Shown in pieces: positions 35,697-60,065 of a stretch of DNA of 64,000 bases. Every line of letters starts with the position of its first letter. Position 1 is the stretch's first letter. The position numbers and the translations under genes were made by a program. This DNA comes from Lishizhenia tianjinensis (GTDB taxonomy: Bacteria > Bacteroidota > Bacteroidia > Flavobacteriales_D > Crocinitomicaceae): NCBI RefSeq assembly GCF_900116425.1, contig NZ_FPAS01000001.1:1-64000 (forward strand), read 5' to 3'. The notes under the pieces were generated by a model. It was not told where the DNA came from. It saw nothing but the letters and a program-made list of their open reading frames with translations, and did not search any database.

Positions 35697-37094
35697 CTAA
35701 GTGACATCTATAAAAAACTCTTTTATCTCATAAAGTTCGGGTATGTAGCAGTTCCAATTGTAAGTATCAGTAAGTCGCACTCTAAAGGTATCAGCGGCAT
35801 GGGCCTCACCATGAATGATAAAAACTTGTTCCGGTGTATTGGATATTTCACTCATCCAGTCAATGAGTTCAGCTTGGTCGGCATGGGCTGAGAGTGTTTG
35901 TATTTCAAAAACTTCAGCTTTCACCTCGTAGTATTTACCGTAAATTTTGAGCGATAGACAGCCATTTAAAAGTTTTTTTCCGCGTGTACCATCCGCCTGA
36001 AAACCTGCTACTAGTACAGAGGTTTCGGGTAAACCTACGTATTGTTGTAAGTAGGTGAGAACCCTTCCTCCCGTCATCATTCCACTTCCAGCAATAACAA
36101 TTTTCGGACGTTTATCATCTATAACTTCCCAAGTTTCTCTGTATTCCTGAACTATGGTAAATGCATCACACATCGCCGCACATTCTTCTGAGGATAGTTT
36201 GTGCCAAGATTTATGGTTGTGAAAGACTTTGAGTACATTGGCCCCCATAGGACTATCCATAATCAACGGGATTTCTGGAATTAGGCCTTTCTTTTTAAGT
36301 TGCCATAAAATGTACATGAGTGTTTGCGTCCGTTCTACAGCAAAGCTCGGAATTATCAATGTACCACCTTTTTGAACGGTATGGTTTACGATTTTCTCTA
36401 TCTTTTCGTAAAGGTTTTCCTTGGGGTGTATGCGGTCACCATAGGTACTTTCAATAAAAAGTATATCTGCTTTTTGAGGTTTCTTATAAGGGCGCATCAA
36501 CAAGTCTTCTTTTCTTCCTATATCTCCAGAAAAAACAAAACGTTTTCCGTAGACATTCATTTCTATGAAAGTAGCGCCTATTATATGTCCGTTGTATTGA
36601 AAGCGGATTTCGATTTGGTCAAAAAGTGTAATCCACTCTCCTTCTGGTAATGCCTTGAAATGATGTATGGCCTTCTCAGCGTCTGTTAAATCGTAGAGTG
36701 GAACGGATGGGTTATGCTTTGAATATCCTTCTTTGTTGGCTCTATCGGCCTCCTCTTCTTGAATTTTGGCACTGTCGCGTAAAATTATTTCAGCAATGTC
36801 TAATGTTGGAGCGGTTCCGTAAATCGCATTTTTATACCCCATTTTTATCAACCTTGGCAAATAGCCGGTGTGGTCCATATGACCATGTGTAAGTACAACA
36901 GCGTCAATTTCTGCAACATTTACTGGTAGATAATCCCAATTGAGTTGCCGAAGTTTTTTAAGACCTTGAAACAAACCACAATCCACCATAATTTTTTTGT
37001 CTCTCACCTCGATGAGATATTTAGAACCTGTTACTGTACCGGCTGCACCTAAAAAGTGTAGGGATATTTTATCGCTTGCATTCATAGTAGACAT
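35697..37094 (-). CDS. MBL-fold beta-CASP nuclease (RNA-specificity domain)
   Basis: 465 aa. The metallo-beta-lactamase core has motif 2 HGHMDHTGYLP at about 70-80, and Asp in FVFSGDIGRKEDLL; the beta-CASP insert follows (VERTQTLMYILWQL ... IPLIMDSPMG) with the late motifs IVIAGSGMMTGGRVLTYL, SAHADQAELIDW (motif B/C) and IHGEAHAADTFR. Such proteins act as RNA 5'-exo/endo-nucleases like CPSF73, RNase J or archaeal aCPSF. Zinc-dependent, cytosolic. Third gene of a tight operon (9-bp gap) with the ATP-cone nuclease and a small helical protein. Confidence 0.93.
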   Translation of the reverse strand: MSTMNASDKISLHFLGAAGTVTGSKYLIEVRDKKIMVDCGLFQGLKKLRQLNWDYLPVNVAEIDAVVLTHGHMDHTGYLPRLIKMGYKNAIYGTAPTLDIAEIILRDSAKIQEEEADRANKEGYSKHNPSVPLYDLTDAEKAIHHFKALPEGEWITLFDQIEIRFQYNGHIIGATFIEMNVYGKRFVFSGDIGRKEDLLMRPYKKPQKADILFIESTYGDRIHPKENLYEKIEKIVNHTVQKGGTLIIPSFAVERTQTLMYILWQLKKKGLIPEIPLIMDSPMGANVLKVFHNHKSWHKLSSEECAAMCDAFTIVQEYRETWEVIDDKRPKIVIAGSGMMTGGRVLTYLQQYVGLPETSVLVAGFQADGTRGKKLLNGCLSLKIYGKYYEVKAEVFEIQTLSAHADQAELIDWMSEISNTPEQVFIIHGEAHAADTFRVRLTDTYNWNCYIPELYEIKEFFIDVT

Positions 37095-37103
37095 TTTATG
37101 TTA

Positions 37104-37946
37104 TTACAAGTTACACAATTGTTTGGCTTCTGATAATATGTTCGCATGCCTTTGGGGATGAATTTCGATTTTTGTAAGAATTTCTCTTTTTTTAAGAAGC
37201 TCTCGGCATAGAATTATCATCTCTTTGAGAAGGGCTTGTTTTTCATTTAGGGTTAAAGTCGTTAGGCAAGTAATTGGATGAAGGCCAGCTACGTCTATGC
37301 GTTCTTTAAGAGATCCTTTACTGGGATAGTTCCAAGCTACCAAATTCAAGTCCATACAATTACTATAACTTATAGCGTCTTTACTGAAACGCGTATTGGT
37401 AAATATCCAACCTTGTAAGGATTTGTTTTGATAGGACGCGTCCTTTTTCCATTGTAGGCGAATATCGTAAAAGCGAGATTGAATGTAAAGGGGGACTTTT
37501 ACATCACTTTGACGCGCTTGATCGCTGTGAAATTTGCATTCCACTAGAAGGTAAAAATTGTTTTTAATTGCAATAACATCAACCTCATGTTGCACACAAT
37601 TTCCTTTTAGTATTTGGTCGGTCTTAGTGGTGAATCCTTGATAGATTAAGGTTTGTTCAACAATGCGTTCGAAGGGAAAACCAGAAGGGCCTAAGTCTAA
37701 AAGTGCTTTTTTTAAATTGTAGCGTGCAGCAGTAGCGCGCTTAAATTGTTTCAAACGCGAAAAGGCAATTTTATGTATTTCTTGGGTAGAGATATAGGGG
37801 TAGAGCGCTAATTTGACTTCTTCCAGCACATGAGCAATCATTTCAGCTGTAGCACCAGAATTTTTTAAAGAAAGTTTTAGTTTCTCTTCGTTGAAAAGGG
37901 CTTTTTTTCCATTCATTTTTAGAATGGGGATAGGATTTAGTTCCAT
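37104..37946 (-). CDS. ATP-cone fused to PD-(D/E)xK (Mrr-like) nuclease
   Basis: 280 aa, cytosolic. Residues ~5-95 form an ATP-cone (LKMNGKKALFNEEKLKLSLKNSGAT, then YISTQEIHKIAFSRLKQF and AARYNLKKAL), the nucleotide-sensing module known from ribonucleotide reductases and NrdR. Residues ~95-215 form a restriction-endonuclease-like domain: FERIVEQTLIYQGF, then catalytic Asp123 (HEVDVIA), Glu136 and Lys138 (LLVECKFH), and Gln/Arg-rich QSRFYDIRLQW. Middle gene of the small-protein / nuclease / beta-CASP operon, with gaps of 7 and 9 bp. Suggests nucleotide-gated cleavage of DNA (or RNA); the exact role is unknown. Confidence 0.88.
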   Translation of the reverse strand: MELNPIPILKMNGKKALFNEEKLKLSLKNSGATAEMIAHVLEEVKLALYPYISTQEIHKIAFSRLKQFKRATAARYNLKKALLDLGPSGFPFERIVEQTLIYQGFTTKTDQILKGNCVQHEVDVIAIKNNFYLLVECKFHSDQARQSDVKVPLYIQSRFYDIRLQWKKDASYQNKSLQGWIFTNTRFSKDAISYSNCMDLNLVAWNYPSKGSLKERIDVAGLHPITCLTTLTLNEKQALLKEMIILCRELLKKREILTKIEIHPQRHANILSEAKQLCNL

Positions 37947-37953
37947 AGCGGCA

Positions 37954-38166
37954 TTAGTTGTCGGGATGCGTCTGTATGTGATGTTCTAAAAGTAGTTTAA
38001 GGCTCTCTAGATAATCTGAAAAATTTTGAGTGTCTATCTTATCTGATACAGGAGCCTTCAGGGTAACAGGAGTTTCATTCAAATGTTGGTAGAGTTCAGG
38101 GTATTCCTGTTCTATTTTCAAAGTAAGGGCACTTATTTCTGTAAGTAATTTTTGCAATCTTTTCAT
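37954..38166 (-). CDS. Small helical hypothetical protein, first gene of the ATP-cone nuclease operon
   Basis: 70 aa from the ATG at 38166; a longer frame from 38211 would add 15 residues but without support. The sequence is almost wholly helical (LTEISALTLKIEQEYPELYQHLNET, then FSDYLESLKLLLEHHIQTHP), probably a two-helix hairpin or coiled coil. The stop is 7 bp before the ATP-cone nuclease gene. Small partners at the head of nuclease operons are often regulators or adaptors; nothing in the sequence proves it. Confidence 0.65.
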   Translation of the reverse strand: MKRLQKLLTEISALTLKIEQEYPELYQHLNETPVTLKAPVSDKIDTQNFSDYLESLKLLLEHHIQTHPDN

Positions 38167-38820: not shown

Positions 38821-40116
38821 TTAATTGCTTGTTTTATTTCCGCGAGCTTCAAAGGTCTTGTATATGGATTCTAAAAGGATACAAAAAACAACAATACCTA
38901 TGGCGATAATCACTCCCGTTAAATTACTTTGCGCTTGTTGACTGATAAGTACGATCAAAGCAATTCCGCATAACAGAGCTCCTATTAAGGGAAGGAATTT
39001 GTTGGCTTTTATTTCTTTTGCCAAACGATATCCAGTGAGGTTTACGATGCCAAAAATGATAAGGAAACCTACACTTCCTGCAGTGGATATACTTTCAAGT
39101 TTTAAAACATTTACCAATACTAGGGTTGCAATAGAAGTAATAAGTAATCCTAGAGGTTGGTTCCATACCTTTGATAAGAAGTGATGCGGTAGTTCATCAT
39201 CTTGTGCAATTTCAAAATTCACCCTACTACCTCCATAAAGTGAGGCATTAATAGCAGAGAAAGTTGAAATTAAGGCAGCTACTGTAATGATGCTAAAACC
39301 AATCTTACCCAACATGGGTTCTGCTGCTTTGGCCAAGACGTAATCTTCGGCGTTGGCGATTTCTCCGAAAGGAAGTGAGCCAACAGTAACAAACGCTATA
39401 ATAACGTAAAGCAGGATGACAAAGATGACTGAAATGTAGTAAGCGCGAGAAATGTTCTTCTCTGGATTTTTAATATCTGGAGCAGCATTAGCAATTAGTT
39501 CAAAGCCTTCATAGGCTACAAAAATTACCATTCCGCCTGCGAAGAGTTTTATTGGAGTTTCCCAATGCTCCGGTGATAATTGAACAAGGTTTACATTGCC
39601 TATTAAACCATAGGCTCCGATTCCTACAAAGGCCAAAAGGATGAGTAGTTTTATGACCACCGCATAGGCTTCTATTTTACCAACCACTGCAATGCTGTAA
39701 TAATTAATGGCAGTAGCCAAGAGTATGATAGCACTCGCATAGATGTGAAAATCATAGGTAGGATTAGAGGTCAATTTTAAAAGATTGGGAGCGTAAGATC
39801 CAAAGGCCGATGCATACAAAGAAAGCATGATAATGTAGCTCAACCATAGTAAATTATTCATGGCCCCGCTGAATACTGTTTTACCAAATCCTTGATTGAT
39901 AAATTTTACTGTTCCTCCACGATCTGGATAAGCTTGCGATAATTTTACATAGCTATAGGAAGTGATAAGTGCTAAGAAACCTGCTAATAAAAAGGCAATG
40001 GGCGTTCCTCCTTGGGCTAGGGCAACAGCAAGTCCTAAAACAGCAAAAATTCCGCCGCCAACCATACCGCCTATACCTATAGAAATGGCCTCGCGTAATC
40101 CTATTTTATTGTCCAT
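38821..40116 (-). CDS. APC-superfamily amino-acid/polyamine permease
   Basis: 431 aa with twelve predicted membrane helices, normal for the family. The first helix reads REAISIGIGGMVGGGIFAVLGLAVA (the GxGGxxGxGIF substrate-binding loop of APC transporters) and helix 6 has GGMVIFVAYEGFELIAN, the second unwound helix. Moves an amino acid or similar solute across the inner membrane, driven by proton or sodium symport or by exchange; the substrate cannot be read off. Monocistronic. Confidence 0.92.
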   Translation of the reverse strand: MDNKIGLREAISIGIGGMVGGGIFAVLGLAVALAQGGTPIAFLLAGFLALITSYSYVKLSQAYPDRGGTVKFINQGFGKTVFSGAMNNLLWLSYIIMLSLYASAFGSYAPNLLKLTSNPTYDFHIYASAIILLATAINYYSIAVVGKIEAYAVVIKLLILLAFVGIGAYGLIGNVNLVQLSPEHWETPIKLFAGGMVIFVAYEGFELIANAAPDIKNPEKNISRAYYISVIFVILLYVIIAFVTVGSLPFGEIANAEDYVLAKAAEPMLGKIGFSIITVAALISTFSAINASLYGGSRVNFEIAQDDELPHHFLSKVWNQPLGLLITSIATLVLVNVLKLESISTAGSVGFLIIFGIVNLTGYRLAKEIKANKFLPLIGALLCGIALIVLISQQAQSNLTGVIIAIGIVVFCILLESIYKTFEARGNKTSN

Positions 40117-42041: not shown

Positions 42042-42755
42042 TTAATGTGACTTTAAAAATTGGTCCATTTTATTTTTTAATTCGTTATAGTTTTCAATTA
42101 CTTTGGTTTTTTCATAGGTTACATTCAGAAAGCCAAATTCCAAATCAGCATAAAGGATGTAATGGTCATATTCTTCTATTAGTTGAATGATATGATCGGG
42201 ATATTTTAAATAAATAGATCCCAAAATCCATGTGGGATATTCGTCTGCCGACCCTTTTTCTAAAAGGAGTAAATCAATAAACTGTCGAACTAAGCTTTCA
42301 TCATATTCACTGAGGATGTAAGCATTGAATAGGGTTAGGGTAGGTGCATATTTGAATTCATGAAAATTTAAGGCTTTTTGCTTTTGAAGGGAGTCACCAT
42401 TTAAAAGTAGTGGGTAGTGAATCGCTTCAAGCTGGAAGATAGAATCGATGAGGTGATATTTTTCAATCACTGGAAGGTCTAATATATCTTGTATGCTGTT
42501 TTTATGAATAAATCCACCTTCGTCACATGCTTTTAATACCCAAAACCAATCTGAGGTGTCAGTGGGATAATAAACAAAAAAATCCTTCGCATAAAGGGTG
42601 TCTACTATCTTTGAATTTGAACTTTGTGTAGAACGCATGTAGGTGAATCCAGCGCTATCTTTAAGGAGACCAAAATTCGATTCAAAATCATTTTGCGCGG
42701 TGCTTAAAATGCTGAGAAAGACGAAGAGTATAGCAAGGAATAATTTGTTTAGCAT
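42042..42755 (-). CDS. Secreted hypothetical protein with possible SH3-like domain
   Basis: 237 aa, signal peptide (1-20, cleaved after TAQ). Residues ~30-85 (GFTYMRSTQSSNSKIVDTLYAKDFFVYYP ... WVLKACDEGGFIHKNSIQ) have the pattern of a bacterial SH3-type domain (VRxxPsxxSxVvgxl...GWV). The rest is helical. Eleven bp after the YdeI-like gene in the same direction, so likely co-transcribed. Family otherwise unknown. Confidence 0.75.
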   Translation of the reverse strand: MLNKLFLAILFVFLSILSTAQNDFESNFGLLKDSAGFTYMRSTQSSNSKIVDTLYAKDFFVYYPTDTSDWFWVLKACDEGGFIHKNSIQDILDLPVIEKYHLIDSIFQLEAIHYPLLLNGDSLQKQKALNFHEFKYAPTLTLFNAYILSEYDESLVRQFIDLLLLEKGSADEYPTWILGSIYLKYPDHIIQLIEEYDHYILYADLEFGFLNVTYEKTKVIENYNELKNKMDQFLKSH

Positions 42756-42765
42756 ACTTTGCTTT

Positions 42766-43344
42766 TTATTGAAACGGTTTCGGCATACTTTGTTGTCCGG
42801 CAGCTTCTGCTATGACTTGTATACGTTTCATTTTGGTTTCTTCTCTTTTGGCCAAAACAATCCAGGATAATAGAATTTTTTTAGAGGATTTGCTCAAGCT
42901 TTCAAAGTAGTCACTTGCACCTTCATACTTGTTAAATTCCACGACAAGTTTATCAGGAACCAGCAAAGCTTCAACACTATCGAGCAGGGTCCAAGAACCA
43001 TTTTCTTTCGCGCGCTCTATCACTTGCCATCCGGCTTTTTCCATGCGGTTTTCAGCTTCGAGTTGTAGTATTTTGTCTTTGTTGACTTTAGACCACGTAC
43101 TGTTCGCCTTACGCTTAGAAAAATATTGATGATAGGTGTCTGTGTCAATTTTTACCTTTTTGCTATCTATCCATCCAAAACACAAGGCTTCGTCAACCGC
43201 CTCACTCCAAGTTAAACTCGGTTTCCCAGATTTAACGGTATGAAAAACGAGCCAAACCGCTTCTGTATTTTCATGGTTTTTAACCAACCATTCCCTCCAT
43301 GCTTTTGGGGAATTCGGGTGAAATATGTTTATTTTTTCAGACAT
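42766..43344 (-). CDS. YdeI/OmpD-associated family protein
   Basis: 192 aa. Full-length YdeI-like family: WREWLVKNHENTEAVWLVFHTVKSGKPSLTWSEAVDEALCFGWIDSKK at the start (the EALCFGWID motif is diagnostic), YFSKRKANSTWSKVN in the middle, and the C-terminal OmdA domain (FESLSKSSKKILLSWIVLAKREETKMKRI). Cytosolic; members are associated with bacteriocin or peptide resistance in E. coli, while their mechanism is unclear. First of two or more genes running toward 42042. Confidence 0.9.
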   Translation of the reverse strand: MSEKINIFHPNSPKAWREWLVKNHENTEAVWLVFHTVKSGKPSLTWSEAVDEALCFGWIDSKKVKIDTDTYHQYFSKRKANSTWSKVNKDKILQLEAENRMEKAGWQVIERAKENGSWTLLDSVEALLVPDKLVVEFNKYEGASDYFESLSKSSKKILLSWIVLAKREETKMKRIQVIAEAAGQQSMPKPFQ

Positions 43345-43351
43345 TGAGTAG

Positions 43352-44161
43352 TTAATAATATGTGTATTTAAAAGTGGTTTTGGTTGACTCCACTTTATTT
43401 TTAGTATTCCTTTTGTATTGTCTACTCAAAGGTAAACCTGATTGCGAATAATTGGTCTTTTGATATCGGATAACTTTTCCATTAAGATTCATTAGGCTTA
43501 ATTCATTTGTTCTTAAAAAACCAGTTTCCCAGTAAATGAAACGTTGAATTTCTTCTCCTTGAAATGAAGATTCATTATAACTTATACGAACAGAATCTAT
43601 GCGATTGTTACTGCGGTATTCTATCCATTGTTTAATGCTATCCTCCCTTTTTACATTTTTATAAAAAGTGTAAGTTCTTTGAGTTTCGGAAACAATAGAG
43701 TCTATAACTTCATATTCTTTTTTAGGATACAATTTTAATGTGTAATTGGCTGCTTGATCGGTTATAGGAGAAAAATCTTTGAAGGCGTAATTTTCTCATT
43801 GTTCATTATATTCTTCTTGTCGCACTCGAATTATTTTATTTGGAGAAGATTTGTCGTACCAAAGCATCATAATTATTCTTCCTAAATGATCATAAATCGA
43901 ATGTATTTTAAATTCAATAATTGAATCTCCGAAGCTATAGGTATTAGCTTCAATTTCTTTTCCTTCTTCGTTATAAACCCAGTAAAAAGCATTGGGGTAA
44001 TCGTTGAAAAACGCCATGGAATCTTCTGTGTCGAATTCAATACATTTGTTTACGTTATTGATTTTAAGTACGGAATCCGCGATCTGTGGACCGAAGTATT
44101 GACACCAAAGGTTACTTGTGATCAAGGTGATTATTAGAAAAGTGGAGGCGTACTTTTTCAT
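43352..44161 (-). pseudogene. Secreted hypothetical protein gene interrupted by one in-frame TGA
   Basis: One reading frame of 270 codons spans the whole interval, broken only by TGA at 43796-43798 (context QEEYNEQ-stop-ENYAFKDFSPI). After the stop the same frame runs without a further stop for 147 codons to TAA-type termination at 43352. The first half has a signal peptide (1-20, LWCQ) and both halves share a repetitive beta style (YDHLGRIIMMLWYDK; GLPLSRQYKRNTKNK) like YD/toast-rack secreted proteins. Nothing in the second half offers a good start (first candidate a TTG at 43732). I read this as a single gene with a recent nonsense change, for example CGA to TGA, rather than two genes. A sequencing error is also possible. 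Confidence 0.7.
43796..44161 (-). CDS. N-terminal half of the interrupted gene, may still be translated
   Basis: 121 aa with its own ATG and signal peptide, ending at the in-frame TGA. This is the only part likely to be produced if the stop is real. See the pseudogene entry covering 43352-44161 for the full frame. The product would lack the C-terminal half, so probably does not fold fully. Confidence 0.5.
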   Translation of the reverse strand: MKKYASTFLIITLITSNLWCQYFGPQIADSVLKINNVNKCIEFDTEDSMAFFNDYPNAFYWVYNEEGKEIEANTYSFGDSIIEFKIHSIYDHLGRIIMMLWYDKSSPNKIIRVRQEEYNEQ

Positions 44162-44178
44162 CTAATTAATTATTCCAA

Positions 44179-44805
44179 TTAATCTTTATAAGGATCCATA
44201 ATTCCATTCGGTTTATAACCTTGCTTGGTGCCAAATTGTTCCTTGTTTATGGATGCGTGAATTGCATTCGAATATAAATATTTACCTCCTCCTAGAGCCA
44301 ATTTGTAGCGCAATTGAACCGGTTCTGTACCATTAAATTTTGGGACATCAAATTCCCAATATTGGTTGTTGTCTAGAAATACTTTATGGTAACTGTTGCC
44401 ACAACCACTGCTAGGTAAATATTCTATTTTTTTCCATTCACCATTATAAAGTACTTCTGCAACACAGGATATTCTGCTATCTGAGGCAGAAAGTTTAAGT
44501 ATAGAATCAGATAAGTTGACGATATAAAATTTATAGCCTTCATATTGCTTATAAACCGTGGTAGTTTTGGTAGTGTCGAGGTATAAATAAACTCCTTCAC
44601 CCCTTAGGTTTAAAGTGTCCGAATAAACCTTGGGCGTATTACTTGATCCTCCAAACCCGCCGAAAGCCGTTGAGTCTATTATACTTGATTTAACATACAT
44701 ATTACCTCGCAGTTTATATTTTACATTGAACGAAGTTGAGTCTTGACCATAAGAGTAAGACATTACAAAACAAGTAACTAGTAAAAGGAAATGAAATTTT
44801 CTCAT
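44179..44805 (-). CDS. Secreted hypothetical protein
   Basis: 208 aa, signal peptide 1-20 (cleaved after SYGQ). Beta-rich mature part: LRGEGVYLYLDTTKTTTVYKQYEGYKFYIVNLSDSILKLSASDSRISCVAEVLYNGEWKKIEYLPSSGCGNSYHKVFL, a pattern of an Ig-like or fibronectin-like domain with one likely disulphide. In series with the genes on either side (17-18 bp gaps). No family that I recognise. Confidence 0.75.
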   Translation of the reverse strand: MRKFHFLLLVTCFVMSYSYGQDSTSFNVKYKLRGNMYVKSSIIDSTAFGGFGGSSNTPKVYSDTLNLRGEGVYLYLDTTKTTTVYKQYEGYKFYIVNLSDSILKLSASDSRISCVAEVLYNGEWKKIEYLPSSGCGNSYHKVFLDNNQYWEFDVPKFNGTEPVQLRYKLALGGGKYLYSNAIHASINKEQFGTKQGYKPNGIMDPYKD

Positions 44806-44823
44806 GTATTTAGGGATTGATGA

Positions 44824-45873
44824 TTAATGTATTAATTCAAAACATTCTTTGTTTGGGATGCACACGAATGAATTTAATCCATTTTTAATTTCAATTTTTG
44901 TGCTATTAACTCCTTGAAAATACAAAAAATTATTCTCAATTCTATAGGGAAGATTATCTGGCATCAACATATCATATTTGTATATGCGTTCTTTTGAACT
45001 GGATATAAAAATAAGTTTACTTTGTCCCTTTTTAGAAATGGAATCACCAATTCCAATTTTAGAAAAATCTGTAACAACGGAATAAGAAATTTTCTCTTCT
45101 ACGCCCTGTATCTGACCTAGGTAGGTAATTTCATGTTCGATATATAGAGAGTGATAATTGCGTTTTTTATTGACAAATCGAGAATCTACAAATTTCGAAT
45201 AGTCGTTTACAATTTGGTCTTGGGGTGAAAAGAATACCTCATTATGCTGCGTGATGTTATTTAGATAGTAACTTAGGTTTGGGGCTACTTCATAACTCTG
45301 GTTCCATGGATGTTCACCTTTCTCTAAACTTACGACTTTTTCACGTTCAATTCTATTAAAATCTTCGTTGTAGAATTCGGTTATTTGCTCTGTATAATAG
45401 CCTTCTTCATAGAATGAGTTGATATAACTGGTATGTCTTTCAAAAGCAAAAGTTTTGCCGTCTTCATCGAAATAATGCATATACCCAATTGAACCATCAC
45501 CACTTTGTAGATAAGGTACTTGCTTTGCACAAAGAAACTGTCCCGAATTATCCCTAAAAAGACTATAGGTGGTGTTTGTGCATGTGTCGAGTAAATCTTG
45601 ACTTAGTAAGCGAATGATATGCTCAGAGGGTTCATCTAAAAGCCAAGATTCAATAAGTAATTCATTGTTCGCAATAAGTGTATCTATACTTCTTTTTTGA
45701 TACTTCAAACGTTCTAAAATATCAGCTACTGGTAAACGAGAAGAGGAAGGATAAATCGTGTCATTTTCAATATCCTGAGCTAGATCACCGGTGAATGTTT
45801 TAGGTGTTGGATTTTGCTGACAAGCAAAAAGCGTTAAAAGGAGCATGAATAGCAAGAGGTGTTTAGGATACAT
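44824..45873 (-). CDS. Hypothetical lipoprotein
   Basis: 349 aa. Signal peptide with lipobox (LTLFAC, Cys18), so lipid-anchored in the envelope. The mature protein has an N-terminal helical segment (PVADILERLKYQKRSIDTLIANNELLIESWL) and a long beta-rich part with mixed Tyr/Phe strands. Cys91, Cys108 and two close to the C-terminus (VCIPNKECF) may form disulphides. First gene of a likely three- or four-gene transcript toward 43352. Unknown family. Confidence 0.75.
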   Translation of the reverse strand: MYPKHLLLFMLLLTLFACQQNPTPKTFTGDLAQDIENDTIYPSSSRLPVADILERLKYQKRSIDTLIANNELLIESWLLDEPSEHIIRLLSQDLLDTCTNTTYSLFRDNSGQFLCAKQVPYLQSGDGSIGYMHYFDEDGKTFAFERHTSYINSFYEEGYYTEQITEFYNEDFNRIEREKVVSLEKGEHPWNQSYEVAPNLSYYLNNITQHNEVFFSPQDQIVNDYSKFVDSRFVNKKRNYHSLYIEHEITYLGQIQGVEEKISYSVVTDFSKIGIGDSISKKGQSKLIFISSSKERIYKYDMLMPDNLPYRIENNFLYFQGVNSTKIEIKNGLNSFVCIPNKECFELIH

Positions 45874-45900
45874 GTCGAATCTGTTTTTAGTAGTGAAGTA

Positions 45901-46269
45901 TCATACAAATGCTTTAAATCCGCCATAGATCATTCTACGTGCATCAAAAATCAAATCTTTTTCATCCATCAAAGGAGCCACAAGCTCTGTCATTCTGGGG
46001 TCCATAGGTACAGAAGTGTTTGCTTTATCTCGAATTTCTTTAGAAGGAAAAACAACCCAACCAAATACGGGGATTTCATTAGGACTGCAGTTAAGAGTAT
46101 CTATAAATGAAATAACTCCATCCAATGCCATATCATCACCTACAAATTCTTGATAAGATAATGCACCGTGTTCGAGCCATATTTCCGAAACTTGTTCGGC
46201 TATTTTTTGGTAGGTGTCTAAATGCTTTTTGGGAAGGCTAAATACAAATCCGTCGATGTAATTTTTCAT
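45901..46269 (-). CDS. DUF1428 domain-containing protein (YbaA-like)
   Basis: 122 aa. Matches the YbaA/DUF1428 ferredoxin-like family over its length: YIDGFVFSLPKKHLDTYQKIAEQVSEIWLEHGALSYQEFVGDD, WVVFPSKEIRDKAN, and the closing RMIYGGFKAFV motif. Small cytosolic protein, probably dimeric. Role in the cell is not known to me. It starts 18 bp after the secreted protein gene at 46288 in the same direction. Confidence 0.92.
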   Translation of the reverse strand: MKNYIDGFVFSLPKKHLDTYQKIAEQVSEIWLEHGALSYQEFVGDDMALDGVISFIDTLNCSPNEIPVFGWVVFPSKEIRDKANTSVPMDPRMTELVAPLMDEKDLIFDARRMIYGGFKAFV

Positions 46270-46287
46270 GAATAGAAAGATAAAATT

Positions 46288-46875
46288 TTATTCTAATAAC
46301 GTGTAAAAAGCTTCTTCGCGTATGGCTAATTTATAGGCCTCCAAAAAGCTAAGATGTTGATTTTTTTCTTGGATTACCAATGCTCTTTTTATTAAACTTC
46401 GAATGTTCTCATAAGAGATTGAAAATCCGTTATCCGCGAAAGTAACGTTTAAGGTTATATCGTAAAAATATTCCCGAAAGTTCGTAGAATCTGGAGTGAG
46501 TGCTTCAATTGCTGTATCCATTTGCTGTTTTAATTTTTCTTTATCATAGACATCTAGGTAATACGTCATTTTCAAAGAGTCTAAGTCCATACCTTGAAAA
46601 TAATACAGCTTATTTAAAGTATTTGCTGCTTTTAAAGGCTCCTGAAGACTATCGTAAATTATAAATCGAAGCAATGCTATATTTTGATAGGCATCTGTGT
46701 AAGTAAGGCCACAAAAACCATAATTTGAATGTTCTGCTTTTTCCAGAATTTCAAGAGCTTTTTTTAACTTTCCTTGTTCAATTTTATTGGCAGCTTTATC
46801 AATCAAACGGAAACCTCTTTGGGCAACTGATAAAAGGGGAAGTGTAAGTAATAGGAAGAAAATTACTGGTTTCAT
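46288..46875 (-). CDS. Secreted hypothetical protein
   Basis: 195 aa, signal peptide 1-18 (cleaved after SVAQ). The mature part is helical, with AANKIEQGKLKKALEILEKAEHSNYGFCGLTYTDAYQNIALLRF resembling TPR helices, then QQMDTAIEALTPDSTNFREYFYDITLN. Likely a small periplasmic TPR-type protein. Same direction and close spacing as the DUF1428 gene. Specific role unknown. Confidence 0.72.
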   Translation of the reverse strand: MKPVIFFLLLTLPLLSVAQRGFRLIDKAANKIEQGKLKKALEILEKAEHSNYGFCGLTYTDAYQNIALLRFIIYDSLQEPLKAANTLNKLYYFQGMDLDSLKMTYYLDVYDKEKLKQQMDTAIEALTPDSTNFREYFYDITLNVTFADNGFSISYENIRSLIKRALVIQEKNQHLSFLEAYKLAIREEAFYTLLE

Positions 46876-46924
46876 TAGAGCGTTTAATTAAGGATGTAGC
46901 TGTGTTTAAATTTCCATAAAATAA

Positions 46925-47626
46925 TCAGGTATGTTCCAAAATGTAGAGGGCCTTTGAAATTCGTTGGGCTAAATCATTATTTTCCTTTTCCATTTTAAAA
47001 AAGGCATTTTCAAGGTCTTCTTTTTTAGAATTTATCCAGTTTTTAAGGTCCACAACTACTTCTCCAGAAAAGTCTGAATTTTCACCTTCTTTATCTACCA
47101 TATCGGGATAATAACTTTCTATAAATGTCAAGAAATTGAGGAGCCCAAATTTATCCGGTTGAAGGTCCCAAAGTGCTAACATTTCAGAGATTTGTTTGAG
47201 AACTTTATGAAGTTCAATCAGTAGTTCAAAATCTAGAAGTTCAGTATGTTTGATCGCGTATTCCCACCATACTTTCAAAAATTCCACAACGGCTTTTTGT
47301 TCATTTTGTGGCCAAGTTTTCCAATGGCCATATTCAAGTTTTCCAAGCACTACAAAAAGGTCTACGCTAAGTTCATTGCATGCACTCAGGTCTAAAATTC
47401 TGGGGAGGAAATGTTTAAAGTCATTTACATTTCCCCAAGTGGTCATTGCCTTAAAAGCATATTTGGAAAGTTCTTTGTCCTTCAAATCTCTTAATGGAAG
47501 GGAGTGAATATGATAATGATCCTCTTTACCAACGCAGCAAGGACAGCCATCGATTTCAGAAGGAAGAGGGTAAGAGCTAAAAGTAGTGTAAACTTCGTCG
47601 AGGGTATCTTTAAGGTGAGTAGACAT
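46925..47626 (-). CDS. Conserved hypothetical protein with CxCC motif
   Basis: 233 aa, cytosolic. Near the N-terminus it has a CPCC motif (residues 28-31, EIDGCPCCVGKE) and then HIHSLPLRDLKDKELSKYAFKAMTTWGNVNDFKHFLPRILDLSA, a pattern I recall from a widespread conserved hypothetical family in which 'LSxYAFKAxTTWGDVxDFRHFLPRLLEL' is the hallmark. The rest is helical. The CPCC may bind zinc. Placed among accessory genes; no function can be assigned, though an immunity-type role has to be considered. Confidence 0.75.
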   Translation of the reverse strand: MSTHLKDTLDEVYTTFSSYPLPSEIDGCPCCVGKEDHYHIHSLPLRDLKDKELSKYAFKAMTTWGNVNDFKHFLPRILDLSACNELSVDLFVVLGKLEYGHWKTWPQNEQKAVVEFLKVWWEYAIKHTELLDFELLIELHKVLKQISEMLALWDLQPDKFGLLNFLTFIESYYPDMVDKEGENSDFSGEVVVDLKNWINSKKEDLENAFFKMEKENNDLAQRISKALYILEHT

Positions 47627-47658
47627 AACTTAAAAAGGTTAATTTTTAGTGAATACTT

Positions 47659-48237
47659 CTATGAATTTTCTAAAAATCCTTTTGGGAACATACCCAATTC
47701 TACGGTGCTTTTGTGAGAGATGATTTTTGCTGGAGCTCCTGCTATAGCAACGTTGTCTCCTACACTTTTGGTCACAACGCTGTTGGCACCTATAGAAACA
47801 TTGTTACCTATAGTGATGTTACCAAATAATTTTGCTCCCGGACCTATATACACATTATCACCTATAACCGGTGCTCCATGATAGGTACCTATGCTTACCC
47901 CTGGATGTATTCTACAATTTTTTCCTATCGTCGCATTTTTAGTGATAATCAGTGTTCCATAATGGGGAAAACATAAGCCTGGACCAATGGTGTTGATCGG
48001 TATGGAAAAGCCTAAACGTATACCCAACCTAACATTTAGAATTTGAAGTATTTTACATTGAATTTTACGTAAGGGGTTACGCGATTTACAATTCGTCAGG
48101 TATTCTATTTTTCTTAACCTTCTTTGAAAGCGAATGACGGGATTTTTAATATGCGTAGATAGACTGTAGGTAGTCATTTGATAATGACGTAAATCTTCCT
48201 TTAAATAATGGATGTAATCTTTTCTAGATTGTATCAT
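47659..48237 (-). CDS. Serine O-acetyltransferase-like hexapeptide protein
   Basis: 192 aa from the ATG at 48237 (an upstream TTG at 48264 would add nine residues). N-terminal helical domain (IQSRKDYIHYLKEDLRHY), then the left-handed beta helix of hexapeptide repeats: INTIGPGLCFPHYGTLIITKNATIGKNCRIHPGVSIG, with the catalytic-type His in HPGVSIGTYHG, and NVYIGPGAKLFGNITIGNNVSIGANSVVTKS. Transfers acetyl from acetyl-CoA to serine or to a sugar. EPS-cluster CysE relatives share this form; a cysteine-biosynthesis CysE is not excluded. Confidence 0.88.
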   Translation of the reverse strand: MIQSRKDYIHYLKEDLRHYQMTTYSLSTHIKNPVIRFQRRLRKIEYLTNCKSRNPLRKIQCKILQILNVRLGIRLGFSIPINTIGPGLCFPHYGTLIITKNATIGKNCRIHPGVSIGTYHGAPVIGDNVYIGPGAKLFGNITIGNNVSIGANSVVTKSVGDNVAIAGAPAKIISHKSTVELGMFPKGFLENS

Positions 48238-48329
48238 ACTTGAAATACAGTTGTTGGTCTTCAAATACCCCGAAGTATAGCGCTTTGAGGTAAGACGAAG
48301 ATAAAGATTTTTATTTTTTTTCTGGACAA

Positions 48330-48362
48330 TAAAAAAGGGGAGCGTGTTTTAGCCTTCCCCTT
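48330..48362 (-). terminator. Rho-independent terminator of the UlaG-like metallo-hydrolase gene
   Basis: Stem aagggga / ttcccctt (about 48336-48362) with a loop of about 12 nt, and an A-run at 48330-48336 as the minus-strand U-tract; follows the stop codon at 48371. Confidence 0.75.
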
Positions 48363-48370
48363 AATCATGA

Positions 48371-49627
48371 TTATATAAATCTATAAAAGATTTCCCATTT
48401 TTTTCTCCAGAGAAATTTTAATGTTCTTAAAGTCTGGGGAATAGATTTCGTTGATAAAAAGCCTGTTGATAGCATATTTTGGAAAAAGAAATATTTAGAG
48501 GTCGCTGCTGGATGATCTTTGTCTAAAAACATCCCCGAAACCTGTAAAGTTCCTGTTCCCCATTCAAAGTTGAAAGTAAACCAACATACTTGACTGCACA
48601 TGGTGTACCTCGCTTTTTCTCGTGTTGTTTCCTCCCAAGTTCCCTTTTTAGGATCGATAAATATAGCTCTGTCTAAATCATGTAAATAGATACCAAAAGG
48701 TTCTACCATTTTACGGAAAGGAGCTTTAATTTTTTGTTGAAAAATTGCCATGTTGGCCTCAACTGCTGCTGTAACTTCTTCAAATGTTTTTGAAGCTGGA
48801 GTAGGGTCAATTTTACAGTTTTCTAAATCCCTCATGTAGCGTTCAACGGCATACTCAGAATTGAATGCAGGTTGCTTGGTATTTACTTTGTCATGCGGAT
48901 ACATAAATTGTATCTTCTCCAATCCCATTTTCAAGATGTCTTCCGGTGTATTTACCCATTCGTTCATGCGTTTGTTTTCTTCGTTACAGAAGTATACAAA
49001 GCTGGCAAAAGGAACGATGTAAGTAGGTGAGAAGATCTCATTTTGTAATAGAATATCTTCCTTTTTCTTTTGCGTGGCTCCAATTTCATCGGCGTTATTT
49101 CCTACCCAATTTGCAAATGAAAACTGCGTGAATAGGTAGTCTATTTTTCCAACTTGTTTGGCGATATATTTATATTGGTTTGCTGTAAATACACAATCGT
49201 TTAAGTTTAAAATTGTAGTACCCTCGGCTTTTACCGCTAAGAAAGAATCCATAGAACCTGCAGAACCACAATACAAATCAATGCCTTCAACTTGTGTCCA
49301 TTTGTAAATAGGAAGCTCTATTACCTCTGCGAAACCGAGCTTTTCAAAAGCCTCTTTTAAACGAGTAGAAGCGTGTTTTTGATAAAGAATTTTAATTCTC
49401 TTCTTATCTGCTTCATCTATACCTTTTAAGGTAGGGAAATTAAAGTGATCTGGATGTTCATGGGTTACAAAAATGTAATCGATCTCAGAATAATCTACCT
49501 CTATATCTCCAGCCAATAAGGCCCAGCTATCGTTAAATGTTTTTCCTTTCGTCCACGGGTCCAAGAATATTTTTTTATTGTTTGCTTTAACGATAAAACC
49601 GGCGTGTGATATAAATTCAATTTCCAT
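48371..49627 (-). CDS. UlaG-like MBL-fold metallo-hydrolase
   Basis: 418 aa from the ATG at 49627 (an upstream TTG frame is not needed). The N-terminal 220 residues form an MBL domain: FISHAGFIVKANNKKIFLDPW, motif 2 THEHPDHF (Zn ligands), Asp in the NLNDCVF strand and His in the MYPHDKVN region. The C-terminal ~190 residues are a second domain (about 240-418) I do not recognise, with FRKMVEPFGIYLHDLDRAIFIDP and CSQVCWFTFNFEWGTGTLQ. UlaG- and NAPE-PLD-type relatives hydrolyse lactones, phosphodiesters or sugar-nucleotide-linked compounds. A terminator follows it, so it is not in one operon with the acetyltransferase. Substrate unknown. Confidence 0.82.
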   Translation of the reverse strand: MEIEFISHAGFIVKANNKKIFLDPWTKGKTFNDSWALLAGDIEVDYSEIDYIFVTHEHPDHFNFPTLKGIDEADKKRIKILYQKHASTRLKEAFEKLGFAEVIELPIYKWTQVEGIDLYCGSAGSMDSFLAVKAEGTTILNLNDCVFTANQYKYIAKQVGKIDYLFTQFSFANWVGNNADEIGATQKKKEDILLQNEIFSPTYIVPFASFVYFCNEENKRMNEWVNTPEDILKMGLEKIQFMYPHDKVNTKQPAFNSEYAVERYMRDLENCKIDPTPASKTFEEVTAAVEANMAIFQQKIKAPFRKMVEPFGIYLHDLDRAIFIDPKKGTWEETTREKARYTMCSQVCWFTFNFEWGTGTLQVSGMFLDKDHPAATSKYFFFQNMLSTGFLSTKSIPQTLRTLKFLWRKKWEIFYRFI

Positions 49628-49849
49628 AAAAGATGCTTTATTTCGCGAAATAAAAACACTCAGATGGTTGAGATATAAAACCAAATGAATCTACTATTTC
49701 GCTAAAATTTCATTGATTGCCTGCAAAAATAGAATTGGTTTTGGAACTGCCTACAGGTAAAGGAATAAATTGATAAAAATCAAAGTGAGGGGAACTGCCT
49801 TTTTATCAGAGTGGTTTTGTAAAGTGAAATCTATGTATTCCGTCACGTA

Positions 49850-50377
49850 TTAGTGCATTAAAAATACAACTTGTGTGAGCTGTTCGTCTTTGAATGCCGC
49901 AGTACATACAATATTTAAAGATCTATCTTTGGTTGCACACATGGCTGGAAAAGGACAAATGAACTCTATGTTTTCAATGCCTGCGATATCCGCGCTAACT
50001 GTTTCTTTAAAGATGTTAACCTCTCCCAAGGTTAATGTACCTGTAAAACTTGTTGTAGGAAATTTTTCATCACCATCTGTGTTGAAATTTATACCTAATC
50101 CAGTAATTTTATTTTTGTTGGTGAAGAAAACAATACCTGAGGTTTCGTAGAAATAAGCTTTTTCTCCATTGGCGTGTTCTTTAATTTCCGTAGCATCTCC
50201 AAGTTCTTTTGTCACTTCTTTTATCGTTGTTTTACTTGTAAGATTTAAACCTTTTATTGTCAGTGAAGGACTGGAAGTGTAGTCGATATTTAATGAGTCG
50301 ATTTGTGCAAATGCCGTATTCATGCAAAAGATGAATACTCCGACAAGAAAGTGAAAAGTTAGTTTTGATGTTTTCAT
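49850..50377 (-). CDS. Secreted hypothetical protein
   Basis: 175 aa from the ATG at 50377; the GTG at 50410 would add 11 residues in front of the signal peptide and is unlikely. Signal peptide (1-24, cleaved after AFAQ). The mature domain contains LTSKTTIKEVTKELGDATEIKEHANGEKAYFYETSGIVFFTNKNKITGLGINFNTDGDEKFPTTSFTGTL, a repeated beta-hairpin style of bacterial secreted 'DUF' proteins. No motif recognised. Single gene. Confidence 0.72.
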   Translation of the reverse strand: MKTSKLTFHFLVGVFIFCMNTAFAQIDSLNIDYTSSPSLTIKGLNLTSKTTIKEVTKELGDATEIKEHANGEKAYFYETSGIVFFTNKNKITGLGINFNTDGDEKFPTTSFTGTLTLGEVNIFKETVSADIAGIENIEFICPFPAMCATKDRSLNIVCTAAFKDEQLTQVVFLMH

Positions 50378-50420
50378 GCTGTAATTTTTATCTGTTTTCA
50401 GTAATATCACGAAAAATAAG

Positions 50421-50445
50421 AAAAAGCCCCAAATGGAGCTTAAAT
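50421..50445 (-). terminator. Weak terminator-like hairpin
   Basis: aagc-c-cc / gg-a-gctt with AAAT loop and an A-run on the 5' side (minus-strand U-tract), between the T9SS protein gene at 50471 and the gene at 49850. Short stem, moderate support. Confidence 0.45.
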
Positions 50446-50470
50446 CTATAATTATTGGTTCTTTTTTAAA

Positions 50471-51388
50471 TCAATTTCTGATCACCATTTTCTTTGTGTA
50501 TACCTTCCCTTCTTTTTCTACATGCAGGAGGTAAATGCCATTTTCTAAGGTAGATACCTTTAAGGTGTTGTTTGTGCTGCGTAATACAACTTGACCTTTC
50601 AGGTCTGTAATTGTTGAGCGAACATTAACAAAATCTGAAGGAAGTTGTATTTCACCATTAATTACGGGGTTAATCAGATTTAAATCAATATCAAATGTTT
50701 CAATACCTATTGTGTTATAAGGGTAGATACAATCACTTCCAGTATTGGCCGTATAGCTGATGTCATCATCTTCAAAACAACTAAAGCTGTAAAATGGACT
50801 TTCATCTGGCATGAAGCAAAATGTCATACGAGGAAAAACAAAACTGTATTGTTGAGAGGTGGTTTCAAAATGTCCAAATCTTGAATTTACTACACCATTT
50901 ATTCTAAAACTATTGTTGTCATCGGCACTAAGGGTATACTGTAGGTAGTCTTGACCAGATAAAGTCACGGTTGTACTATCTACAACACTAATGTTACTGG
51001 TAATGGCACAAGTTGTTTCTGATGGGTTGGCCATGGTATTGTAGGTGGTATTTTGGTTCAGGTTGAAAATGTAAATGGGATGAAAATCACTTTCGTAGTA
51101 CATGTGCACAGTATCATTGGCGTAATATACATAGTTCGTATCCAATACTTCTGAGAATAGTTCGACAGTCTCACCAAATTGATTCATTCCAAAGTTATAC
51201 TGCGTGGTTTCATATCCTTTACATGCTTCTCCCATTATAACTGTATCCATTACTTCTTGTACGATAATATATCCCCCATAGGGAAAACTGTGAAATGTAT
51301 AGGTCCATTTAGCGTTATCGCTTACCCAAGTTTGTTGGGCAAAACTTATACTCGTTAGGAGTAATAATAAAAAAGTAAGTGATTTCAT
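50471..51388 (-). CDS. T9SS type A sorting-domain secreted protein
   Basis: 305 aa. Signal peptide to about residue 17 (SFAQ). Mature part is beta-rich (WVSDNAKWTYTFHSFPYGGYIIVQEVMDTVIMGEACKGYE), with a C-terminal type A sorting domain (about 235-305; LNLINPVINGEIQLPSDFVNVRSTITDLKGQVVLRS ... LENGIYLLHVEKEGKVYTKKMVIRN), which sends it through the type IX secretion system and is removed on the surface. Cargo function unknown. It has a small inverted repeat upstream (51405-51422). Confidence 0.9.
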   Translation of the reverse strand: MKSLTFLLLLLTSISFAQQTWVSDNAKWTYTFHSFPYGGYIIVQEVMDTVIMGEACKGYETTQYNFGMNQFGETVELFSEVLDTNYVYYANDTVHMYYESDFHPIYIFNLNQNTTYNTMANPSETTCAITSNISVVDSTTVTLSGQDYLQYTLSADDNNSFRINGVVNSRFGHFETTSQQYSFVFPRMTFCFMPDESPFYSFSCFEDDDISYTANTGSDCIYPYNTIGIETFDIDLNLINPVINGEIQLPSDFVNVRSTITDLKGQVVLRSTNNTLKVSTLENGIYLLHVEKEGKVYTKKMVIRN

Positions 51389-51404
51389 GATGTGGTGTAT
51401 TTAA

Positions 51405-51422
51405 GTTATCATTGAAGATAAC
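51405..51422. repeat. Short palindrome upstream of the T9SS protein gene
   Basis: gttatc (51405-51410) / gataac (51417-51422) around a 6-nt spacer, 17 bp before the ATG at 51388. Operator-sized, but short enough to occur by chance. Confidence 0.3.
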
Positions 51423-51475
51423 GAGATTAATGAAAAAATAGTTTGAGCGAACTCAATTTATTTACTCAAAGGGAT

Positions 51476-52174
51476 TTAATATGTCCGTTTGTTAATACTG
51501 TTATTTCTTAAATTGGGGGAAATACTAATTCTAATACGAAAAGTATTTTCTTCTTCTGCTAAGAGAAAGTAAGGATAAATTGTGATTAACCGGTCTAAGG
51601 CATTGTCTAATGAATCACAGCTGTATGCATAGGATTTCGTTTGATCACAAGTTTTTAAGGAGTAGACTCCATTTGAAGCTTCAAAAATGAAATGGAAGGA
51701 ATAGGTGTTGTTATAATTACACAAGCCATTCTTACAACTGTCCATTGCATAGCTAATTAAAGGGTAGATATAAGCGCTAAGGTGATTTTTTAATGCAGCT
51801 TGGTTTTCGAATATAAGGGTGTCTTTGGGGACCCCCATTGATTCATAAAGCTCTTGATAACGGCTCTGGATTAAGTTTTTAGAAGGTAGAAGATGAAGGA
51901 CGAGCGTATCTCCTTTATGCTTTCTAAAATCAATTTTCCTTGTAAATTCTTTGTAGTTTTTAGTATGGATATTCAATTTTTTTCCTCTCGCTTTTTCAAT
52001 TATCAAAGAATTGGTAAGGCTGTCTATGCTATGTTTTTTTTGATTGACAAAAGTGATTTCTGATATTTGAATTTGTTCCAAGGTATGGGCATCTTGGAGC
52101 TTTATAACACATGAAGACTGTGCTGAGCTCCAATGCGTAAGGAACAGGAGGCTAATGAGAAATATTCTAACCAT
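51476..52174 (-). CDS. Secreted hypothetical protein
   Basis: 232 aa, signal peptide 1-18 (cleaved after SSAQ). The first ~80 residues resemble a carboxypeptidase-like regulatory beta domain (VIKLQDAHTLEQIQISEITFVNQKKHSIDSLT). The rest is mixed with Cys (DSCKNGLCNYNN) and a final repetitive strand region. Follows the gene at 52183 by 8 bp, so in the same transcript. Function unknown. Confidence 0.7.
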   Translation of the reverse strand: MVRIFLISLLFLTHWSSAQSSCVIKLQDAHTLEQIQISEITFVNQKKHSIDSLTNSLIIEKARGKKLNIHTKNYKEFTRKIDFRKHKGDTLVLHLLPSKNLIQSRYQELYESMGVPKDTLIFENQAALKNHLSAYIYPLISYAMDSCKNGLCNYNNTYSFHFIFEASNGVYSLKTCDQTKSYAYSCDSLDNALDRLITIYPYFLLAEEENTFRIRISISPNLRNNSINKRTY

Positions 52175-52182
52175 AGTATTGC

Positions 52183-52692: not shown

Positions 52693-52704
52693 AATAATCT
52701 TATG

Positions 52705-54237: not shown

Positions 54238-54259
54238 AATAAATTGATGTTTGACTTTT

Positions 54260-54916: not shown

Positions 54917-54989
54917 GGTGCTTTCGGTGATGTGTTTTGTAGAGGTTAATATACGCTTTGGCCACCAAAGCATCAAGGAATCTGTTCAT

Positions 54990-56138: not shown

Positions 56139-56264
56139 AAAGTCGCGAAGCTTTTTTAATTTTTCGCAACTAAAATAGAGAAAGCATTATGATTAGATGG
56201 AGATTAAAGAGGAGAATTTTGAATAATGTTCAGAAAGAAAGATAATTTCTCCAGATCTACCACT

Positions 56265-56873: not shown

Positions 56874-56988
56874 GTTTTTTTGTTAAAAGTTACATCAATT
56901 TAATGTTTTTATCAGTTGATTCCTAAATAATTGGATTGAAATTGTTTGTTTCAGAATAAATTATGATTCTTAAACTTCAATCTCTCCT

Positions 56989-58131: not shown

Positions 58132-58215
58132 TTTTATTTCAAGAATTGGTATTACTATCCAATAATAGTAATAAATAATCCAATATGAATTTGTAATCCT
58201 TTCTAATAATTTGAG

Positions 58216-60058: not shown

Positions 60059-60065
60059 GGCTAAA

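What the first reader, a model, noticed from the sequence alone, without database searches (positions are those of the whole stretch)
35697..38166. ATP-cone nuclease + beta-CASP nuclease + small helical protein operon
Three genes with 7- and 9-bp gaps encode a small helical protein, an ATP-cone fused to a PD-(D/E)xK nuclease (Asp123, Glu136, Lys138 all present), and a beta-CASP metallo-nuclease. ATP-cones read the ATP/dATP level. A nucleotide-gated nuclease paired with an RNA-type nuclease could be a phage-defence or nucleotide-stress system, or an RNA-processing unit. This is the most system-like unknown in the window.
Basis: partly seen in the sequence, partly recalled or inferred. Interest (0 to 1): 0.65.

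Follow-up and report, generated by a model that had tools for sequence, protein, structure and literature searches.

The report
ATP-cone nuclease with RNase partner
Two neighbouring genes encode a nuclease with a likely built-in ATP sensor and an RNA-cutting enzyme; they travel together through many related bacteria, fairly often near stress or metal-transport genes, and probably break down nucleic acid when the cell's energy is low rather than fight viruses.

Summary
In detail: three minus-strand ORFs, 7- and 9-bp gaps, an ATP-cone joined to a PD-(D/E)xK nuclease whose D123, E136 and K138 are invariant in 83 of 83 homologues. The conserved unit is two genes, not three: none of 23 other matches of the 70-aa protein lies beside a nuclease gene. 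The nuclease/beta-CASP pair is strong: of 43 beta-CASP genes at least 50% identical to the window's, 42 lie directly downstream of the nuclease; of 17 less similar ones, none. The nuclease is an ATP-cone plus an AF1548-type nuclease. Flanking genes show no defence enrichment but hold universal stress proteins and cation ATPases more often than control loci, though the window's own flanks do not. Some relatives extend the operon with a nucleoside phosphorylase and PRPP synthetase; a like-annotated Bradyrhizobium operon is microoxia-induced. Best reading: a nucleotide-gated nucleic-acid-degrading pair of a low-energy stress response. Gating, its direction, substrates and role are inferred. Phage defence is not supported. 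New variant of a known kind.

The parts
37104..37946 (-). ATP-cone / PD-(D/E)xK / AF1548-type C-terminal domain nuclease, 280 aa
37701..37940 (-). ATP-cone domain (residues 3-82)
   Evidence: VIA-align Z 8.9, rmsd 2.0 over 72 residues to E. coli ribonucleotide reductase 8vhp_A, Z 8.8 to NrdR 9gex_B (modest Z, model pLDDT 64); Pfam 21.7 bits, below cut-off 25.8; K10, G13, K22, T54 align with the own genome's ribonucleotide reductase cone
37284..37691 (-). PD-(D/E)xK nuclease domain (residues 86-221); D123, E136, K138
   Evidence: AF1548 Z 15.3 over model residues 86-280; also Cdn1, Can2, FokI, N.BspD6I nuclease domains at Z 7.5-8.8; invariant active site 83/83
37107..37283 (-). AF1548-type C-terminal helical domain (residues 222-280)
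   Evidence: covered by the AF1548 match; RAD51 rows Z 8.4-8.7 over 58-59 residues (modest); PF22357 AF1548-like_C in two plasmid relatives, one above and one just below its cut-off
35697..37094 (-). beta-CASP/RMMBL metallo-RNase, 465 aa
   Evidence: TTHA0252 E 6.9e-66; catalytic motifs conserved in 47 homologues
35970..36329 (-). Beta-Casp domain (residues 256-375)
35739..35930 (-). RMMBL RNA-specificity domain (residues 389-452)
37954..38166 (-). small 70-aa protein upstream; local addition, not a conserved neighbour of the nuclease
   Evidence: 22 of 395 genomes incl. own; none of the 23 other matches within 8 kb of a nuclease gene

Best explanation
A two-gene nucleic-acid degradation unit of a low-energy or microoxic/metal stress response. 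The ATP-cone binds adenine nucleotide and holds the AF1548-like nuclease in check (or licenses it) according to ATP/dATP level; when ATP falls the nuclease acts, most likely on DNA or structured nucleic acid, while the co-expressed beta-CASP enzyme cuts RNA. In fuller versions of the operon (Pontibacter and Criblamydia plasmids, a few chromosomes) the products could feed a thymidine/AMP-phosphorylase-family enzyme and a PRPP synthetase; the window has only the two nucleases and its genome lacks that phosphorylase. Shown: architecture, conserved active sites, tight co-inheritance, more stress/cation-ATPase neighbours than at control loci, no defence enrichment. Inferred: nucleotide gating and its direction, substrates, and physiological role.
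For: 42 of 43 close beta-CASP genes sit directly downstream of the nuclease, 0 of 17 more distant ones do (the best 60 rows, own genome left out). Of 83 nuclease genes recovered in 84 loci, 46 have the partner in the stretch: 45 downstream on the same strand, 1 (L046) directly upstream with a beta-CASP from another branch. Distance matrices of 45 pairs correlate at r=0.92, best of 2000 permutations 0.18 (shared ancestry contributes). Active site invariant; ATP-cone fold. Context within about 9 kb: USP cluster in 18/84 loci vs 0/40 controls, P-type ATPase cluster 26/84 vs 1/40 (28); after thinning to 44 loci 6/44 vs 0/40 and 15/44 vs 1/40, p=0.017 and 1.5e-4. Phosphorylase + PRPP synthetase downstream of the pair on both plasmids and in L012, L053 (one gene between) and L055; in L010 a few genes upstream. 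In L051/L052 (two genomes of one unnamed family, f35) a cone-glucoamylase fusion follows the nuclease after one gene (17, 87; its cone scores 24.7-24.8, just below the 25.8 cut-off). Proteobacterial beta-CASP relatives: phosphorylase + PRPP synthetase in 7 of 8 plasmid records read. A like-annotated Bradyrhizobium operon, bll3117-bll3116-bll3115, is listed as raised in microoxia (PMC6515984) and lowered in a fixK2 mutant with a predicted box (PMC9104804) (passages only; 63, 64).
Against: No nucleotide-binding or nuclease assay exists. The window's own 18-kb neighbourhood holds no member of the USP or P-type ATPase clusters; its near flanks are a VIT-family transporter, a CDF transporter and an amino-acid permease. 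The phosphorylase is rare: 3 of 395 genomes, absent from the window's own, so the salvage link cannot be general. 37 of 83 nuclease genes are solo, beside varied genes. Enriched families were picked after inspection, without correction for multiple testing; Hsp20 and archaeal-type GAPDH are not significant after thinning. PMC6515984 does not mark bll3115-bll3117 as direct FixK2 targets or as raised in bacteroids. That bll3115 is an orthologue was judged by annotation and operon content, not by sequence.
Confidence: 0.45

Rival explanations
1. Phage defence: the ATP-cone senses phage-driven dATP/ATP change and unleashes the DNase and RNase as an abortive-infection pair.
For: Patchy distribution (73 of 395 genomes at E<=1e-3), presence on two plasmids, nuclease fold similar to Card1/Can2/Cdn1 effectors, one solo copy beside a Pycsar TM protein.
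Against: No PADLOC enrichment in flanks vs controls; no relatives in phage records and no close ones in viral contigs; context leans to stress and cation transport.
Confidence: 0.13
2. Housekeeping DNA/RNA maintenance: the AF1548-like nuclease repairs or trims DNA under dNTP control and the beta-CASP enzyme processes RNA independently; they are merely co-expressed.
For: AF1548 similarity and a helical C-terminal domain somewhat like RAD51's N-terminal domain; beta-CASP's best solved relatives include the RNase TTHA0252 and CPSF-type enzymes; stress genes are absent around the window's copy.
Against: Patchy presence, three copies in one genome (G254) and plasmid carriage do not look like housekeeping; tight pairing with a dedicated beta-CASP clade.
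Confidence: 0.17
3. Cargo of metal/copper resistance islands: the pair hitch-hikes on mobile stress islands and its own activity serves nucleic-acid damage caused by metal.
For: P-type ATPase cluster near 26 of 84 loci vs 1 of 40 controls; copper or heavy-metal ATPases close to several proteobacterial relatives.
Against: 58 of 84 loci have no such ATPase in the stretch, the window among them, though it has VIT-family and CDF transporters.
Confidence: 0.12
4. The ATP-cone is only an assembly or folding module and does not gate activity; the pair is a constitutive RNA/DNA degradosome.
For: The window's cone is below Pfam's cut-off.
Against: Cone residues K10 and K22 are kept in 98% and T54 in 94% (rest S) of 83 homologues, which suggests nucleotide binding is under selection.
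Confidence: 0.13

Closest known systems
AF1548 of Archaeoglobus fulgidus (PDB 1y88; Pfam PF22357 AF1548-like_C) and Mrr_cat nucleases
   Same: Nuclease plus C-terminal domain align over residues 95-277, E 3.4e-28; Z 15.3.
   Different: The solved chain (199 residues) aligns only to residues after the cone; no beta-CASP partner known to me (not searched).
beta-CASP RNases (TTHA0252, aCPSF1/FttA, CPSF73, Cas14 of type VII CRISPR)
   Same: Catalytic motifs and RMMBL domain.
   Different: Scores below the NCBIfam equivalog cut-offs for Cas14 (370.5 vs 800) and aCPSF1 (272 vs 580.2); a separate clade linked to the ATP-cone nuclease.
Proteobacterial MBL - thymidine phosphorylase family - PRPP synthetase operons (annotated alike: bll3117-bll3115 of Bradyrhizobium diazoefficiens)
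   Same: Proteobacterial plasmid beta-CASPs read here (about 42-44% identical) have the phosphorylase and PRPP synthetase in the same gene run in 7 of 8 records, as do the Pontibacter and Criblamydia operons.
   Different: No ATP-cone nuclease in the proteobacterial records read, and none among all plasmid records but the two named; the window lacks phosphorylase and PRPP synthetase beside the pair. bll3115 itself was not compared by sequence.
ATP-cone regulators (ribonucleotide reductase, NrdR)
   Same: Same fold and aligned K, G, K, T positions.
   Different: Here attached to a nuclease and, in L051/L052, a second cone-like domain to a glucoamylase.

Membership tests
beta-CASP metallo-RNase | MBL motif HxHxDH, motifs 3-4 and A-C, Beta-Casp and RMMBL domains | tested here: met
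   Pfam domains over cut-off; H70, H72, D74, H75, H170, D191, E215, H404, H428 kept in at least 97% of 47 homologues; motif names assigned from recall
Type VII CRISPR Cas14 | NCBIfam equivalog score of at least 800 | tested here: not met
   370.5 bits
ATP-cone | Pfam PF03477 curated score | tested here: not met
   21.7 vs 25.8 bits for the window protein; Criblamydia and Pontibacter homologues pass with 36.2 and 28.3
ATP-cone | beta-hairpin plus helices fold like ribonucleotide reductase/NrdR | tested here: met
   model residues 4-77 vs 8vhp_A Z 8.9, rmsd 2.0, 72 aligned; 9gex_B Z 8.8; Z is modest and model mean pLDDT 64, but many cone-bearing entries fill the list
ATP-cone | binds ATP/dATP and regulates activity | not testable with these tools
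   needs biochemistry
AF1548-like / Mrr-type PD-(D/E)xK nuclease | sequence and fold match with intact active site | tested here: met
   phmmer E 3.4e-28; Z 15.3; D123, E136, K138 in 83/83; Pfam Mrr_cat just below cut-off in the window
Anti-phage defence system | defence-island association or match to a known system | tested here: not met
   PADLOC scans of the proteins and of flanks vs controls
MBL - thymidine phosphorylase - PRPP synthetase operon | phosphorylase and PRPP synthetase beside the beta-CASP gene | tested here: not met
   no such gene follows the window's pair; own genome has no phosphorylase match at E<=1e-60; PRPP synthetase was not searched genome-wide
Conserved three-gene unit as proposed | small protein recurs beside the nuclease | tested here: not met
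   none of 23 other matches within 8 kb

The most novel reading that the evidence does not exclude
Some bacteria treat nucleic acid, and in some loci glucan, as an emergency fuel store: ATP-cones fitted to the depolymerising enzymes (this nuclease; a glucoamylase in one lineage) release them only when ATP is low, and the ribose is fermented through phosphorylase, PRPP synthetase, phosphoketolase and acetate kinase, as laid out in one gene run on the Criblamydia plasmid.
Probability: 0.18. Interest if true: 0.85.

Novelty: new variant of a known kind. Interest (0 to 1): 0.55.

Why it matters
ATP-cones are known mainly from control of deoxynucleotide synthesis (recall, and abstracts listed). A family of nucleases, and in one lineage a glucoamylase, carrying the same sensor would extend it to energy-gated breakdown of cell polymers. 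The pair gives a directly testable case: one purified enzyme, a few nucleotides, a nuclease assay. It also offers a role for a beta-CASP clade whose proteobacterial relatives sit beside metal ATPases, phosphoketolase and nucleoside phosphorylase.

Tried and rejected
Phage defence was tested by PADLOC scans of the proteins and of flanking genes (up to three each side) of 20 paired and 24 solo loci, thinned from 46 and 37 so that no two nucleases share 65% identity, against genes of 40 control stretches; rejected as the leading view. The control scan used 117 of 160 chosen genes: one in four left out, then three very long ones dropped to fit the limit. Control positions were picked by hand from long contigs of nuclease-bearing genomes before their contents were seen. 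Cas14 identity was rejected on score. The small protein as a neighbour was rejected. RNA-to-ribose salvage as the function of every copy was rejected because the phosphorylase is in only 3 of 395 genomes, one of them with an internal stop (G060) and away from the nuclease. L046's reversed pair was first read as proof of a second, independent pairing; the tree also allows one old pairing followed by rearrangement and loss in its three unpaired sister rows. Paper searches gave, in the listings shown, no description of this pair; some listings show only part of the papers counted (15 of 1,733; 12 of 27), and only the held open-access library is covered. A reading of passages of PMC5794259 for nucleotide-contact residues gave nothing usable. 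The structure came from five sequences only. Of 223 beta-CASP plasmid records, eleven were read: two with the nuclease, eight proteobacterial and one more of Bacteroidota (Aureibacter); Paraburkholderia and Aureibacter lack phosphorylase and PRPP synthetase. L115's nuclease was lost in ORF calling (the gene is and counted as paired); L190's and L206's beta-CASP were added by coordinates.
Full report
What is there. The minus strand of the window carries, in order of transcription, a 70-aa ORF (38166-37954), a 280-aa ATP-cone nuclease (37946-37104) and a 465-aa beta-CASP enzyme (37094-35697), with gaps of 7 and 9 bp.

The nuclease. Pfam sees the ATP-cone and Mrr_cat just below their cut-offs in the window protein; homologues on the Criblamydia and Pontibacter plasmids pass both, and also show the AF1548-like C-terminal domain, one above and one just below its cut-off. 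phmmer against solved structures gives one match, AF1548 (1y88), E 3.4e-28 over residues 95-277. An AlphaFold model from five sequences has mean pLDDT 64. VIA-align places the N-terminal 80 or so residues on ATP-cones of ribonucleotide reductase and NrdR (Z up to 8.9, modest but filling much of the list), residues 86-221 on PD-(D/E)xK nucleases and residues 86-280 on AF1548 (Z 15.3); the last 59 residues also resemble the RAD51 N-terminal domain (Z 8.4-8.7). E93, H120, E121, D123, E136 and K138 are invariant in 83 homologues, and the cone's K10 and K22 are kept in 98%; K10, G13, K22 and T54 align with the own genome's ribonucleotide reductase cone.

The beta-CASP enzyme has all expected domains, its catalytic motifs are kept in at least 97% of 47 homologues, and its nearest solved relatives by sequence are the RNase TTHA0252, then Cas14 and CPSF/Integrator enzymes.

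The pair. In a phylum-wide sample of 395 genomes the nuclease search matched 73, including the window's own genome and one partial match; leaving those and the secondary cone-only matches aside gives 76 full-length genes in 71 genomes. Of the best 60 beta-CASP matches outside the own genome (further rows were not used), 43 are at least 50% identical to the window's; 42 of these are directly downstream of a nuclease gene, and none of the other 17 is; 42 of the 76 nuclease genes are thus paired. Over 84 loci (window included), 83 nuclease genes were recovered; 46 have the partner, 45 downstream on the same strand and one (L046) with the order reversed. In the beta-CASP tree 48 nuclease-paired sequences and one unpaired form a clade of 49 rows (support 100/99); the L046 partner lies on a sister branch with three unpaired sequences. 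Either the two kinds of gene came together twice, or one old pairing was rearranged and partly lost. Nuclease and beta-CASP distances over 45 pairs correlate at 0.92 against a permutation maximum of 0.18; shared ancestry of the hosts contributes. The nuclease tree mixes paired and solo genes (12 changes, at least 6 forced), so the partner has been lost or gained repeatedly.

The small protein is not a conserved neighbour: 22 genomes including the own, none of the 23 other matches within 8 kb of a nuclease gene. Thirteen of the 21 other genomes do hold a nuclease somewhere, which may be lineage.

Neighbourhood. Against 40 control stretches from nuclease-bearing genomes, a universal-stress-protein cluster is near 18 of 84 loci (0 of 40 controls) and a P-type ATPase cluster near 26 (1 of 40); after thinning to 44 loci, 6 vs 0 (p=0.017) and 15 vs 1 (p=1.5e-4). 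These families were chosen after looking, without correction; Hsp20 and GAPDH are not significant after thinning. The window's own locus holds neither cluster. PADLOC matches at E<=1e-15 were 5 among 117 flank genes of paired loci, 12 among 141 of solo loci and 12 among 117 control genes: no defence enrichment. No relative was found in phage records, and no close one in viral contigs; two plasmids carry the pair.

Extended operons. On the Pontibacter plasmid the order is nuclease, beta-CASP, thymidine-phosphorylase-family protein, PRPP synthetase; the Criblamydia plasmid (another phylum) has the same four, flanked by phosphoketolase, alpha-glucan phosphorylase and acetate kinase. L012, L053 and L055 also have phosphorylase and PRPP synthetase downstream of the pair, L010 a few genes upstream, with archaeal-type GAPDH, class I aldolase or phosphofructokinase nearby in some loci. 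But only 3 of 395 genomes have this phosphorylase, and the window's genome does not. In L051 and L052 (two genomes of one unnamed family) a glutaredoxin-like gene and then a glucoamylase (PF10091, E about 3e-86 and 5e-86) with an N-terminal cone (24.8 and 24.7 bits, cut-off 25.8) follow the nuclease.

Proteobacterial relatives. Of 223 plasmid records with a beta-CASP match, eight proteobacterial ones were read; seven have phosphorylase and PRPP synthetase in the same gene run, several with copper or heavy-metal ATPases. Phosphoketolase is annotated in the Legionella record; the 'xylulose 5-phosphate 3-epimerase' of three others I take, from recall, to be of the same family. In Bradyrhizobium an operon annotated thymidine phosphorylase family - PRPP synthetase - MBL fold hydrolase (bll3117-bll3116-bll3115) is listed as raised in microoxia (PMC6515984, which does not mark it as a direct FixK2 target) and, for bll3115 and bll3117, lowered in a fixK2 mutant with a predicted FixK2 box (PMC9104804); I saw passages only. 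Its homology to this beta-CASP was not tested by sequence.

Reading. A nucleotide-gated nuclease working with a dedicated RNase in a low-energy or metal stress response fits best. That the cone binds nucleotide, which way it switches, what is cut, and that the window's copy serves stress, are inferences. Phage defence remains possible but has no positive support beyond patchiness, fold resemblance to effector nucleases and one Pycsar-like neighbour.

Novelty. Each domain is known; the architecture and pairing were not seen described in the paper listings, which cover only the held library. I file it as a new variant of a known kind.

Noticed in passing
L052:9817-11349 and L051:1241-2773: Glucoamylase (PF10091) with an N-terminal ATP-cone-like domain (just below cut-off), one gene downstream of the ATP-cone nuclease; second cone matches shortly after the nuclease also appear in G207 and G404.
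   Followed up: partly
L188 (Criblamydia sequanensis plasmid): Chlamydiota plasmid with the pair inside a run of fermentation genes (phosphoketolase, glucan phosphorylase, acetate kinase), suggesting transfer between phyla.
   Followed up: partly
L056:7986-8552: Pycsar effector TM-domain protein 5 bp downstream of a solo nuclease copy.
   Followed up: no
L043:9508-12135, L138:9476-12136: Genes of the P-type ATPase cluster overlapping the end of a solo nuclease by 14 bp in both.
   Followed up: no
window 37954-38166: Small protein family with scattered relatives in 21 other genomes, 13 of which also hold the nuclease elsewhere.
   Followed up: partly
window 38821-40116: Amino-acid permease upstream in the window; members of its cluster also occur near the nuclease in L011 and L050.
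   Followed up: no
G254: Three copies of the nuclease in one genome, two of them paired.
   Followed up: no
window 42042-60848: Long run in which the ORFs of 120 aa or more are all on the minus strand, GC about 34-37%; not examined.
   Followed up: no
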